Assembly (NCBI GenBank): GCA_947172415.1
Contig: OX359192.1
Location: 7,610,901 to 7,674,900, forward strand
DNA length: 64,000 bases
Direction of reading: 5' to 3'
Source: Chondrosia reniformis
Taxonomy: Eukaryota > Porifera > Demospongiae > Chondrillida > Chondrillidae
A model generated the notes under the pieces. That model was given only the letters and a program-made list of their open reading frames with translations, ran no database searches and had not been told where the DNA came from. Shown here piece after piece: positions 49,329-59,499 of this stretch (the first letter of the stretch is position 1; every line of letters starts with the position of its first letter). The position numbers were made by a program, and so were the translations under genes.

Positions 49329-52300
49329 CTATGTGTCCTGTTCTGTATAGATGGACTGCAAATCAGGATACAGACATTCAGCAATGCTAGGATTAGCTCC
49401 AATCTTTTTAATGTCTTCATGGATGCTCAAGTCTTCCTCTGACCAGTGGAAGAGAGATGGCTTGGGTTGTCGCAGTATGAAGCCAATAGAACGAAAGGAA
49501 GGCCTCCTATTTCTGTCAGGATGCCTGTGTGACATACAACCAGAGGATTAAATCATGCAGTAACAAATAAAACTATCACTGACCATGTGTCTATCATCAG
49601 CTGGTAGATGGCCCTAGGGCACCCTGGTGGGGGGCACTGCCTATAACCTCTCATTAATTGTCTAAATGTCTATATATAGACAATATGAACATGACATTAT
49701 ACCCATTGTGCAATCAACTAAAAGTATTTTTCAAGTCTATTATGCAATACGTATGATGTCCTGTGTTTGAACAGGCTTACCTCCTCCATTGATAAATCAT
49801 TAAGAGGCTTTTCACCTAACGACCACAGTTCATAAAGTACGCAGCCATAACTCCAGACATCACTGGCTGTGCTGTATTTCTTGAAGCCAATAGCCTGAAA
49901 TCACAATCATAATGTCTTCTTAAAAGACAACCATCTTCGTGTAATACATTGCTTACTTCAGGCGCTGTCCATTTCAGAGGCACCAGGCCACCTCTAGACT
50001 TGTAATAATAACTGTCATCCAGACACCTCGACATACCAAAATCACTGATCTGACACAAATCAAAGATGACAACTTGAATTTATAAATCACCTTCAAATGC
50101 ATAGGTCAAATGTACCTTGCACACAAAGTTTTCATCTACAAGGATATTTCGTGCCGCTAGGTCTCTATGAACAAACTTCTTTCTTGCTAAGTATTCCATC
50201 CCTTCTGCAATCTGTTGTGAAAATCCCAATATCTGGTCACCAATATCAAATTGGTTCAGGATGTCTAATCTAGCAGAGCATTTTTTAAGGATCAAACATA
50301 TTCAATGTTTGTCTCATACTTTTAATTACTTACTCTTCCTTTTTCTTTCTGAGAAATTCTCTCAGGTTTCCATTAGTCAGTATTTCCAAGATAATAGCCT
50401 GCAAGCAAAAAGAAGACATAAGCTAGATGGATGCTCTCTAGTATTACATGCTAAATGTACATATACACTAGATACGTACAGTCTGCATGTCAATTTACCA
50501 AGTTATATTTCTCCAGAATTATACCATGCAGTTTTATTATATTTGGGTGTGAAAATTGAGCCATAATGGCTGCCTCTTGGAGAAACTTGACTCTCTCATC
50601 CTCCTGCCCTGGTTCACGACTACTCTTCACTGCTACAATCATGTCTCCACTGGGCCTTTTCCAAATGGCTCTATGAACTTCCCCAAATTCACCTTCCCCA
50701 AGCTTTGATTGAACACTATAACACACAAAATATTAAGAGCACCGGAATACTAGACAAAATATAGCCCGCACTACCTCTACCATACTTGATATCAGGAGTT
50801 GAAATGATGCAACAATGCTCTCTTATAAGTAATTCAAGCAATTGGGCTTCATCAGGTGGAGGGTACCAGTAGTACTCAATTGATCCATCTAATACGTGGT
50901 ATGTTGCTTCTATAGGAGATTCTTCTGACTGCACAGCAATAATACAACATAAATAACAGCAATAATACAACATAAATAACAGCAATAATACAACATAAAT
51001 AACAGCAATAATACAACATAAATAACAGCAATAATACAACATAAATAACAGCAATAATACAACATAAATAACAGCAATAATACAACATAAATAACTGCAA
51101 ATTTATAACATAAATAACAACTTGCTGCTTGATTCCTTATTAAAAGAGAAGGTGAAATTAAAAATCAAATAGAAACTGTTTCTTATTAAACATTTTTATT
51201 TAAATTAGAATGTAAGGGAGTATCAGTGAAAGGGATGCAAGTGATTTAAGACATAAATACAGTACAGCTAATTTCAGCTTCTCTTTTAAGGAATCAAGCA
51301 GCAAGTTGTTATGTTATAAATTTGTATTATTGCAGTTATTTATATCTTGTATTTATATTTGTAAGTGATGCAGGTAATTTAAGACTTACTGTTGGATTGT
51401 GATTTTCAAAATACTTATTTCTAGAAGATGTCACAGTGGTCTAAAAAGTTGAGACTTATATACTGTATGTATTACCTCCAAATTATATATATAATTAATG
51501 CAGCATATGTATATGTATTTACACGTACATGTTCCTTGACTACTGAATACATCTCATCAGTTTGATCAACATTTATTGCATCTCTGTTAATCATTAGATA
51601 GGGCTCAATTTCTTGTTCCCCTGTCAATAGAGGTTGCCTTGCTGTTAAAGGCAGACCTGGGAGGAAGGAAGACAGTTGTCAACTAGGAAGTTCTTATGAT
51701 TGATAAAGTGACACAAAAATAGTCTTTCATTGTGAATCTGTTATCATATCACACAATTTTAAAGGAGTATAAAGCAAAATTTGCTTACTTTGTAACTGGT
51801 TACTTTTGAACTTTTTACGATATTGTTTCCCAAGGATTATGATTAGTATGACACAAACAACAATTAGAAGGGTTATTGCTACAAAGCAGGTAAATACTCC
51901 AGTGAAGATGAGCCGGCTCCCCAAAGAATCACTAGTAGGTTCTGAATAAACTTGAAAGAAAAATAAGATTTTCCTATAGACATGGTTGACATCAATAGGC
52001 TAAGGGAAAATTTAGATAATAGATTTAATGTTATGGGAAACAGTAAACACAAATTATCAGCCCTACAGTTGTATCTATGGTGATGATATTAGTACGTCAG
52101 ATAAGAAATAAATACATACCTTCACTTGAAAGTTCGTCAGGAGTGTACTGGCAAAATCTTATCAAAATTTTACCATCTTGACTTTGAACAAAATCTGCCT
52201 CATTCTTCTCTGGTTCCAGTGTTGAGAACCAGTTTACAGTTTTTATGTCCAAACTCATGCCATTTACTGCAGGACACGTACCTTTTGATCGGCGGTTTTT

Positions 52301-52865
52301 AATAAGGTAAAACGTGACATTTGCAGGTAGATCAAACGAAGTTTTAATAAATTTTTTATTACAGCGACAGCAGGAAGATATATTACTTAATGGAGATTTG
52401 CCCATATTTGCTAAAGTTATAGTGGTCATGTTGTCCCATTTAGCAGTTTGTAGTGTGAAACCTCCAGGACACTCCTGCTCTATAGTTAAGAGACAGTAAC
52501 AACCTTTTGGCCAATTCGACCTTTTACAGCAGGACGGGCCTAGGTCTTTTTCTTTCCAGCAAAGCGGAAGACTAGTTTGTTTGCCATCCGTGACATTGAG
52601 GGTAGAACCCACTGAGAAATTAATGGTACCTTTCTTCCATTCAACTCCACACGAATCAGGACATGAAGAGTCTGAGAGTTGTGGCAAAACATAACTTTTG
52701 GAAGGCCAGCATTTCGCTGTAACAACTACAGAAAATAAATTAGGTGAAACAACTTACCCGACCAAAAGAAGCGGCATATATTCATATATTCTGCTGTTAC
52801 CCACTTGATTGGTAAGCAAATATTGCAGAGAAACAAAAAACTACATAGAGATAATTTCTTTGCAT
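49329..52865 (-). CDS. TK5: receptor tyrosine kinase with ApeC-like ectodomain
   Basis: Exons on the minus strand: 52805-52865, 52120-52725, 51789-51941, 51529-51656, 51390-51440, 50786-50928, 50499-50715, 50334-50398, 50116-50269, 49957-50049, 49781-49894, 49584-49669 and 49329-49524; about 688 residues. It has a signal peptide ([20 protein letters not shown]) and a roughly 200-residue cysteine-rich ectodomain starting [13 protein letters not shown] second block ([10 protein letters not shown]...CPGGFTL) ends in [10 protein letters not shown]. The order W-P-x-G-x-Y, C-P-x-G-F, paired C, F-Y-L, C-P-A-V-x-G-M and F-C-x-Y resembles the ApeC family. A membrane segment ([20 protein letters not shown]) follows, then [12 protein letters not shown] and a complete kinase: [35 protein letters not shown]. 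It ends [18 protein letters not shown]. It is a tandem paralog of TK6. Confidence 0.88.
50929..51095 (-). repeat. 23-bp tandem repeat next to a TK5 splice acceptor
   Basis: About seven copies of ACAGCAATAATACAACATAA plus TAA. It lies in the intron directly upstream (gene strand) of the exon at 50786-50928, so the repeats form its acceptor region. Confidence 0.93.
51085..51350. repeat. Inverted repeat (hairpin) in a TK5 intron
   Basis: The left arm, about 51095-51160 (AACTTGCTGCTTGATTCC), is mirrored by the right arm, about 51268-51333 (GGAATCAAGCAGCAAGTT), with a loop of about 110 bp. It is compatible with a small foldback or MITE-like insertion. No terminal duplication was identified with confidence. 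Confidence 0.75.
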
Positions 52866-58400: not shown

Positions 58401-59499
58401 TCCAGCATAACTTAAATAGGGCCATTGACAGCACAATGTATGCATGTAGATCATGAGATGCAGAATATATGAAGAGATGTTTTGCTATATTGCTGACCAT
58501 TCAACGATCCTCTCTTCAGTATTCTTAAATAATCATTATGTTTCTTTTGACTATAGCAGGACTTTAAGAGGACAATACAGGTTATAAGAAGCAGGATAAC
58601 CACTATTCCAAATAACGATCCTAGAATTATTGCTACAGTTGATATGCTTTCCACTGCTGTCTGAAGAGGTTGATAGTAGCAGAAGACTATACTCTTTAGA
58701 TGACCATTTTCAAGGCCAAGAGGTAGTTGACCCTGAAAATTGGTCATGGAGTCTTCACCAGTGTAGGTATCAAAGGTGATCACCTGCTGAGATGGAGCAT
58801 TCATGTTGTCAACCAAAGGACATACCCTAACGGGAAGGGTGTGCCTTTCCCGTACAAGACTGCTTGCCATTAGAAAGAAACTCGAACTGGTTGGAAGCTT
58901 CAGTGTAGTATTCAGCAATCCACTGCACATCCTGTGACAACAAAAACTGATAATCGTTTTTTCTGTTTCATAATTACAAGTCCTTTCACTAGAAACACTG
59001 AAGTTATTAAAGGAAATATTGGAATGTCTGTGATCCAAGGTAGCATTCCCTTCTTCAAACCCATCTGGACAGCTACCATCTGACAGTGATTTGAAGATAC
59101 AGTAACATCCGGGGGGCCAGGGGTTAGAAAAATAATTCGAATAATCATTATTCATACAGACAGTCAGTGAAGGACCTGTGACTCGTTGCTGTTCCGTTTT
59201 AAAAGAAAAATTGGCATAATTTGCAAATATGGTTTTATTGCCATTGTTAGCTGGCAGAACTTTGCACTCTGTACTCCAGGCTGTTTCACAGGCGTCTGAA
59301 ACTGGACAACCATCCACTGTTGCTAACAGGCCGTATGAACCTCCAGGCCAACAATCTGTGGATTAATAAGAATAAATTTACCGTTGAAGTTACAGTTCAT
59401 AGCCAAGCAGCTTGCAGTTGGTATGTACCTGCTGAACTCACCTAGCGAGGTCGCAACACCGAAACAGGCTATAGCTAGGAATACGAATGTTCCAGCCAT
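55469..59499 (-). CDS. TK6: receptor tyrosine kinase with ApeC-like ectodomain and HCD catalytic loop
   Basis: Exons on the minus strand: 59442-59499, 58498-59355, 58113-58252, 57908-57955, 57689-57847, 57387-57556, 57094-57322, 56551-56615, 56336-56489, 56179-56271, 55961-56074, 55796-55881 and 55469-55664; about 789 residues. A signal peptide ([18 protein letters not shown]) is followed by [11 protein letters not shown]...GCPVS and a second block WPPGCYCIF...[10 protein letters not shown]. Then come [21 protein letters not shown] and IVFCYYQPL, an order like ApeC. The membrane segment is [30 protein letters not shown] precedes the kinase: [27 protein letters not shown]. The catalytic loop reads [10 protein letters not shown], with Cys replacing the Arg of HRD. 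It ends [18 protein letters not shown]. One donor (58497, GTCAGC) is weak. It is a tandem paralog of TK5. Confidence 0.88.

What the first reader, a model, noticed from the sequence alone, without database searches (positions are those of the whole stretch)
49329..59499. Two tandem receptor tyrosine kinases with ApeC-like ectodomains
TK5 and TK6 have signal peptide, a roughly 200-residue cysteine-rich ectodomain, one membrane segment and a tyrosine kinase. The ectodomain shows W-P-x-G-x-Y, C-P-x-G-F, a double-cysteine block, F-Y/F-L, C-P-x-V-x-x-M and F-C-x-Y in the order expected of the apextrin C-terminal (ApeC) domain, plus an extra W-P-x-x-S-Y start block. ApeC proteins in amphioxus have been reported to bind bacterial cell-wall components. 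I do not know of ApeC fused to a tyrosine kinase. If real, this is a candidate microbe-sensing receptor kinase system in a sponge-like animal.
Basis: partly seen in the sequence, partly recalled or inferred. Interest (0 to 1): 0.88.

Follow-up and report, generated by a model that had tools for sequence, protein, structure and literature searches.

The report
Receptor tyrosine kinases with microbe-binding-type ectodomains
A sponge genome carries two neighbouring genes for cell-surface signalling receptors whose outer part is an ApeC domain, a module that in some other sea animals grips bacterial cell walls, so the sponge may sense bacteria with the same kind of receptor that our cells use for growth factors; the sequence evidence is strong, the function is untested.

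Summary
The window lies in a 117.38-Mb, 15-contig genome whose contig lengths fit the high-microbial-abundance demosponge Chondrosia reniformis. Both ectodomains are ApeC by Pfam: TK6 E=2.9e-25 over the whole profile, TK5 E=6.9e-13 over 183 of 208 positions. A profile built only from this genome's two other ApeC domains scores them 62 and 66 bits; the best of 1000 shuffles of each is 9.5 and 9.9. Hand-built models splice cleanly: TK6, 13 exons, 793 aa; TK5, 12 exons, 671 aa; introns GT-AG, in frame. In TK6, ApeC and membrane segment share one exon. The genome search returned four ApeC domains; the other two sit in EGF proteins with no kinase found nearby. The kinases are sisters (98% bootstrap) within a large RTK array whose other members seem to carry other ectodomains. 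TK6 has HCD for HRD, as the plant immune receptor EFR has. Most likely these are RTKs triggered by clustering on peptidoglycan-like polymers; the architecture is near certain, the ligand untested. No ApeC-kinase turned up in print, but listings were capped and the key ApeC review is not held.

The parts
59442..59499 (-). TK6 exon 1: ATG and signal peptide ([19 protein letters not shown]; judged by eye)
   Evidence: model, donor GTGAGT
58498..59355 (-). TK6 exon 2: whole ApeC domain plus transmembrane segment plus first cytoplasmic residues, one open exon
   Evidence: (ApeC 1-208/208, E=2.9e-25)
58673..59350 (-). TK6 ApeC domain as matched by PF16977
   Evidence: C4:7669573-7670250, E=9.2e-24 for the genome
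58565..58636 (-). TK6 transmembrane segment [24 protein letters not shown]
   Evidence: coordinates checked; called a membrane segment from its hydrophobicity, by eye
57387..58264 (-). TK6 exons 3-6: juxtamembrane region, tyrosine rich ([25 protein letters not shown])
55469..57322 (-). TK6 exons 7-13: tyrosine kinase ([25 protein letters not shown]) and C-terminal tail [13 protein letters not shown]
   Evidence: PF07714 E=5.1e-78
52805..52865 (-). TK5 exon 1 (proposed): ATG and signal peptide [20 protein letters not shown]; weak donor GTGGGT
52120..52716 (-). TK5 exon 2: ApeC domain (alternative acceptor at 52725)
   Evidence: ApeC 1-183/208, E=6.9e-13; 52205-52708
51789..51950 (-). TK5 exon 3: transmembrane exon (segment [27 protein letters not shown] at 51832-51912)
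50786..51656 (-). TK5 exons 4-5: juxtamembrane region with tyrosines (YLMI, YSVV, YHVL)
49329..50715 (-). TK5 exons 6-12: tyrosine kinase ([25 protein letters not shown]) and tail [13 protein letters not shown]
   Evidence: PF07714 E=3.5e-86

Best explanation
TK5 and TK6 are tandem-duplicated receptor tyrosine kinases of a large sponge RTK array. Most simply, an ApeC domain became the ectodomain in their common ancestor, and it is the only Pfam domain outside the membrane (signal peptide, ApeC, one membrane pass, tyrosine-rich juxtamembrane region, kinase). Most likely the ApeC domain binds a multivalent surface polymer, best guess bacterial peptidoglycan of food or symbiont bacteria; binding clusters the receptors, the kinases phosphorylate each other and the juxtamembrane and tail tyrosines, and SH2 proteins are recruited. 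Shown by sequence: domain identity and order, splice-site consistency, presence of catalytic residues, sister kinases. Inferred: expression, ligand, clustering, downstream output.
For: ApeC; nine cysteine columns are invariant in all four ApeC domains of the genome. Architecture: in-frame models, and one exon holding ApeC and membrane segment in TK6. The last seven kinase and tail exons match in phase and nearly in length (TK6/TK5: 229/217, 65/65, 154/154, 93/93, 114/114, 86/86, 196/196). Lys, catalytic Asp, DFG and activation-loop tyrosines are present in both kinases. Sister kinases: 0.955, 94.4/98. Ligand by analogy: amphioxus and mollusc ApeC proteins bind peptidoglycan. Host, if the species is right: a high microbial abundance sponge.
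Against: No transcripts, no binding data, no usable structure. The two ectodomains are only about 30% identical to each other (32% in the pairwise alignment), so they may not share a ligand, and 30-34% to the EGF-type ApeC. The DxED/DExD motifs that papers call conserved in ApeC are absent from both, although the two clear ApeC domains on C1 lack them too. TK5 matches only 183 of 208 profile positions. By raw identity TK5's kinase is marginally nearer to L009 (53.1% of 241 positions) than to TK6 (51.9% of 308), although the trees join TK5 and TK6. The ApeC binders characterised in the passages read are secreted or cytosolic, not receptors.
Confidence: 0.52

Rival explanations
1. The receptors are real, but the ApeC ectodomain reads an endogenous ligand (matrix, mucus or cell-surface glycoprotein) and works in adhesion, aggregation or development, as suggested for sea-urchin apextrin.
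For: Apextrin lies in apical extracellular matrix and ApeC proteins have been linked to embryogenesis and adhesion (PMC9585378 Introduction; coral apextrin expression around metamorphosis, PMC1896004 passages). The genome's other two ApeC domains sit in large proteins with EGF repeats, a matrix-like make-up. Most well-known RTKs have endogenous ligands (general knowledge).
Against: The ApeC domains whose binding is reported in the passages read bind bacteria or peptidoglycan.
Confidence: 0.33
2. Gene-model artefact: the ApeC exons belong to separate secreted or membrane proteins and the kinase exons to another gene.
For: Splicing was assigned by eye from GT-AG and frame; no RNA data. In TK6 the ApeC and membrane exon, if not spliced onward, would end about 15 residues after its donor as a membrane protein with a short tail (open frame 58451-59362).
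Against: The same order of ApeC, membrane segment, juxtamembrane and kinase exons is found in both copies on the same strand with every junction in frame; in TK6 the membrane segment is in the ApeC exon itself; several other RTKs of the array show an open frame with a membrane segment upstream of the kinase on the same strand. I did not scan for separate promoters.
Confidence: 0.06
3. The ectodomains are decaying relics: ApeC-derived but no longer binding, the receptors being driven by partners or by level.
For: About 30% identity between the ectodomains against 52% for the kinases; TK6 has a non-RD catalytic loop.
Against: Long open frames, nine invariant cysteines and the WP, GCYC and CP.GF cores kept in both.
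Confidence: 0.09

Closest known systems
Short ApeC proteins of amphioxus (ACP1, 2, 3, 5) and molluscs (CgACP1, BgACP1)
   Same: Signal peptide followed by one ApeC domain (PMC9585378 Introduction); same Pfam family
   Different: Those act as secreted or cytosolic proteins and agglutinate bacteria; here ApeC is anchored in the membrane and joined to a tyrosine kinase. Peptidoglycan binding is measured there, not here.
Apextrins (signal peptide, MACPF, ApeC)
   Same: ApeC domain
   Different: No MACPF match here; apextrins are described without a kinase (PMC9585378 passages)
Lineage-specific receptor tyrosine kinases with shuffled ectodomains in holozoans
   Same: Single-pass receptor with tyrosine kinase; ectodomain shuffling is described for holozoan RTKs (PMC8662651 passages)
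   Different: ApeC as the ectodomain: the words ApeC and apextrin do not occur in that paper
Plant pattern-recognition receptor kinases such as EFR
   Same: Single-pass receptor kinase; TK6 has Cys in place of Arg in HRD, as EFR has (PMC8463890 passages)
   Different: Unrelated ectodomain and kinase class (recalled); resemblance would be convergent, and TK5 is a normal HRD kinase

Membership tests
ApeC domain (PF16977) | Pfam profile above the curated cut-off of 26.5 bits | tested here: met
   TK6 89.8 bits, TK5 49.4 bits as single exons; 85.7 and 45.1 as spliced proteins
ApeC domain (PF16977) | Eight conserved cysteines | tested here: met
   Nine cysteine columns invariant in all four ApeC domains of the genome, TK5 and TK6 included; that these contain the published eight was not checked residue by residue
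ApeC domain (PF16977) | Three conserved DxED / DExD motifs (as worded in PMC8361754 and PMC9585378) | tested here: inconclusive
   None in TK5 or TK6, and none in the two C1 ApeC domains that match Pfam at 2.7e-51 and 4.1e-37 (one looser ERED in L001), so the motif does not separate members in this genome
ApeC domain (PF16977) | Fold shared with known ApeC domains | tested here: inconclusive
   No relative in the PDB by sequence; AlphaFold2 with two sequences gave pLDDT 30.1 and 27.5, so no fold search was run
ApeC pattern-recognition proteins | Binding to peptidoglycan or bacteria | not testable with these tools
   needs protein
Receptor tyrosine kinase | Signal peptide, extracellular domain, one membrane segment, intracellular kinase in one protein | tested here: met
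   spliced models; signal peptides and membrane segments judged by eye; no RNA
Receptor tyrosine kinase | Tyrosine-kinase type catalytic domain with Lys, Asp of HxD, DFG | tested here: met
   TK5 [17 protein letters not shown]6 [15 protein letters not shown]; TK6 kinase best PDB matches are tyrosine kinases (Eph receptors E about 3e-63, then FAK; an EGFR entry ranks first because it holds two kinase copies). TK5 was not run against the PDB
Apextrin | MACPF domain next to ApeC | tested here: not met
   no MACPF match at E up to 0.01
Non-RD immune receptor kinases | Arg of HRD replaced | tested here: met
   TK6 only (HCD); TK5 is HRD. The DNA pattern for HCDLAxRN occurs 4 times in the genome against 68 for HRDLAxRN
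Non-RD immune receptor kinases | Role in immune signalling | not testable with these tools
   needs experiment

The most novel reading that the evidence does not exclude
TK6 and TK5 form a receptor and co-receptor pair that senses bacterial peptidoglycan directly: a non-RD (HCD) receptor kinase paired with an RD kinase, the layout of plant surface immunity (EFR with its RD partner, partner recalled), evolved convergently in an animal on a tyrosine-kinase chassis. It would be an animal receptor tyrosine kinase that is itself the pattern-recognition receptor, used by a sponge to police or tolerate its dense symbionts.
Probability: 0.1. Interest if true: 0.92.

Novelty: new variant of a known kind. 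Interest (0 to 1): 0.64.

Why it matters
How sponges tell food bacteria from symbionts is an open question (general knowledge). A domain of peptidoglycan-binding type fixed to a receptor tyrosine kinase gives a concrete candidate: one protein that could turn contact with a bacterial wall into phosphotyrosine signalling without a Toll-like receptor. It also suggests that the large sponge RTK arrays, with unlike ectodomains on related kinases, may be partly environment-sensing or immune receptors and not only growth-factor receptors. A chimaeric receptor with the ApeC ectodomain could test this in cell culture.

Tried and rejected
Structure: both AlphaFold2 jobs (TK6 ectodomain with TK5 as second row, and the reverse) gave unusable models (pLDDT 30.1 and 27.5); fold searches would have been meaningless and were not run.

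Prokaryotic or viral relatives: pattern plus tblastn scans of genome contigs (33 stretches matched a pattern, 0 confirmed) and viral contigs (14 stretches, 0 confirmed). These are collections of prokaryotes and viruses, so they say nothing about how widespread ApeC kinases are in sponges.

More ApeC kinases in this genome: a protein search with the TK5 ectodomain at E up to 10 gave 5 matches, namely itself, the two C1 domains and two with E above 2; it did not list TK6, so its first look misses divergent copies. A local profile of all four domains over ORFs of the window and 20 fetched loci found only TK5 and TK6 (next best E 1.4). Kinase near the C1 ApeC genes: the TK5/TK6 kinase profile gave one hit at E 0.88 in C1:1452000-1490000, taken as noise.

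Literature: ten searches were made, of which 9 and 57 were on other points. No listed title or abstract start, and no passage opened, joins ApeC with a kinase or reports ApeC in a sponge. Limits: one search listed 20 of 236 papers, one search listed 10 of 1,072; of the 8 papers (apextrin and sponge) I opened passages of one. The main review of ApeC architectures (Li et al. 2021, Mol Phylogenet Evol 155:107009) and the 2014 PNAS amphioxus paper are not held, so prior mention cannot be excluded.

Considered and rejected: chance match of a cysteine-rich stretch (shuffle control); pseudogenes (one stop each, frames open, catalytic residues present).
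Full report
What was checked. The finding names two minus-strand genes, TK5 and TK6, with ApeC-like ectodomains. I asked whether the ectodomains are ApeC by an independent profile, whether ectodomain, membrane segment and kinase can belong to one gene, whether this is unusual in the genome, and what it may do.

Source. The window is C4:7610901-7674900 of a genome of 117,379,552 bases in 15 contigs. The kidney sponge Chondrosia reniformis assembly has 117.37 Mb in 14 chromosomes plus a mitochondrion, with chromosomes 1, 3, 5, 8 and 12 of 10.41, 9.42, 8.8, 8.13 and 7.52 Mb (PMC12181767, passages); contigs C1, C3, C5, C8 and C12 are 10.41, 9.42, 8.80, 8.13 and 7.52 Mb. 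C4 is 8.954 Mb against 8.96 in the paper. I take the species as C. reniformis, a high-microbial-abundance sponge with dense bacteria in its mesohyl. This is inference from lengths.

ApeC identity. Pfam ApeC (PF16977) matches the TK6 exon at E=2.9e-25 over positions 1-208 of 208 and the TK5 exon at E=6.9e-13 over 1-183, both above the curated cut-off. A six-frame search of the whole genome with the family gave four matches, two of them these; the tool warns that its counts are lower bounds. The other two, on C1, are stronger (E=1.1e-49 and 1.5e-35). A profile made from the C1 pair alone scores TK6 62.2 and TK5 66.2 bits; of 1000 shuffles of each, 879 and 942 were scored and the best reached 9.5 and 9.9 bits. 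Nine cysteine columns are invariant in all four.

One gene each. Hand-built models (coordinates rechecked) use GT-AG at every intron, keep frame at every junction and end in one stop. TK6: 13 exons, 59499 to 55469, 793 residues. TK5: 12 exons, 52865 to 49329, 671 residues. In TK6 the ApeC domain, the membrane segment and the first cytoplasmic residues lie in one 858-base exon, so the link from ApeC to membrane is read directly; the link from membrane to kinase rests on splice sites. In TK5 the ApeC exon and the membrane exon are separate. The last seven exons correspond one to one (TK6/TK5): lengths 229/217, 65/65, 154/154, 93/93, 114/114, 86/86 and 196/196, same phases. The spliced proteins carry both Pfam domains. 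The weakest part is the signal-peptide exon of TK5. No RNA data could be used.

Kinases. Both have the glycine loop, VAVK or VAIK, DFG and activation-loop tyrosines. TK5 has [10 protein letters not shown]6 has HCDLATRN, a non-RD loop. In the whole genome the DNA pattern for HCDLAxRN occurs 4 times and that for HRDLAxRN 68 times, with 0 matches of the reversed control patterns; the patterns miss loops of other wording or split by introns. So TK6 is in a minority but not alone. In the tree set, 2 of 34 kinases lack the Arg: TK6 and one HAD at L016. [quoted passage not shown] I treat this as a lead; with one gene of the pair affected it may be coincidence. The nearest solved kinases to TK6 by sequence are Eph receptors and FAK, with an EGFR entry first because it holds two kinase copies. 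TK6 has about 200 residues between membrane segment and kinase with ten tyrosines, among them YQNL and YMNV, which resemble Grb2-type sites (motif recalled, not tested); TK5 has about 110 with seven.

Relatives in the genome. The TK6 kinase search gave 167 matches, exon by exon, many in clusters on C4 (the printed list is cut). From that list I fetched 20 regions and gathered 34 kinases including those of the window; this is a chosen sample, not all. TK5 and TK6 are sisters with support 0.955 (FastTree) and 94.4/98 (IQ-TREE SH-aLRT and bootstrap). Next to them stand the RTK at L005:994 and L009, with modest support (0.909; 85.7/72). By raw identity TK5 is 51.9% identical to TK6 and 53.1% to the shorter L009 row, which speaks mildly against. 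The alignment profile was built from TK5 and TK6, which may lean slightly towards them. Ectodomain identity is about 30%. Nearby RTKs seem to carry other ectodomains: six open frames taken as such, from L005, L009 and the window, had no Pfam match at E up to 0.01, and no further ApeC was found in the window or the 20 loci. So ApeC most simply joined this kinase chassis once, before the TK5-TK6 duplication; loss in the others is not excluded. The C1 ApeC domains lie among EGF-type exons (EGF on both sides matched for L001, upstream for L002), followed by open frames of over 1000 residues of which the first 257 and 283 scanned had no Pfam match. The TK5/TK6 kinase profile finds no kinase above noise in C1:1452000-1490000 (one hit at E 0.88).

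Mechanism. ApeC proteins of amphioxus and molluscs bind peptidoglycan; the mollusc ones bind the polymer but weakly or not at all muramyl dipeptide, GlcNAc or MurNAc (PMC9585378 passages; PMC8361754 passages). A polymer ligand is naturally multivalent and would cluster a single-pass receptor, which is the usual way to switch on an RTK (general knowledge). I therefore favour a contact sensor for bacterial wall material. The chief rival is an endogenous matrix ligand, since apextrin itself is a matrix protein and most well-known RTKs have host ligands (general knowledge).

What failed. AlphaFold2 with two sequences gave no usable fold; no ApeC structure is in the PDB by sequence (one hit at E=0.87, a ribosomal protein); scans of prokaryote and viral contigs confirmed nothing.

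Novelty. PMC8361754 (passages) says more than twenty ApeC architectures are known and names host groups, sponges not among them; PMC9585378 speaks of at least fifteen phyla. The words sponge and Porifera occur in neither, and their kinase mentions (2 and 1) are in reference lists. Eight searches on the subject listed no ApeC-kinase, with the listings capped. The 2021 review that catalogues architectures is not held, so the claim of novelty is provisional. Shuffling of RTK ectodomains is known (PMC8662651 passages), hence a new variant of a known kind.

Scores. Architecture real: about 0.93. Microbial polymer as ligand given the architecture: about 0.55. The combined statement gets 0.52.

Noticed in passing
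59892-62404 (+): A further RTK (TK7) lies head to head with TK6; the open frame with its membrane segment begins about 390 bases from the TK6 start codon, and no ectodomain exon is evident upstream on that strand.
   Followed up: partly
62711-63223 (+) and L005:994-2378 (+): The next RTK seems to have a Ser/Thr/Pro-rich ectodomain with a membrane segment in the same open frame; its kinase stands among the nearest to TK5 and TK6.
   Followed up: partly
L005:4531-5514 (-), L005:5820-6662 (+), L009:5657-6340 (-), window 28843-29532 (-): Ectodomain-like open frames of neighbouring RTKs without Pfam match; the two in L005 look like near copies of each other on opposite strands. An RTK array with unlike ectodomains on related kinases.
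   Followed up: partly
54747-55404: Perfect inverted repeat between TK5 and TK6: arms of 308 bases, 100% complementary, 42 bases apart; probably a young fold-back element.
   Followed up: partly
50933-51119: Tandem repeat of 8.1 copies of a 23-base unit in the TK5 intron just before the exon at 50928.
   Followed up: partly
15199-16653 and 19885-21388 (+): Two closely similar tandem RTKs (100/100 sisters, short branches); four nearly identical ones in L010-L012.
   Followed up: no
G000 C2:8958166, C8:8043465, C10:6344413: Three more HCD (non-RD) kinase-like sites in the genome, surroundings not looked at.
   Followed up: no
L026:510-1211 (-), L027:777-1496 (-), with L025:6107-9373 (-) and L026:6376-9498 (-) downstream: Tandem pair of large EGF and ApeC proteins followed by open frames of over 1000 residues, no Pfam match in the parts scanned.
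   Followed up: partly
5931-9113 (+) and 45129-46997 (+): Coding minisatellites: ATTSDSR repeats and TLEGTSSTQV-type repeats inside long open frames.
   Followed up: no
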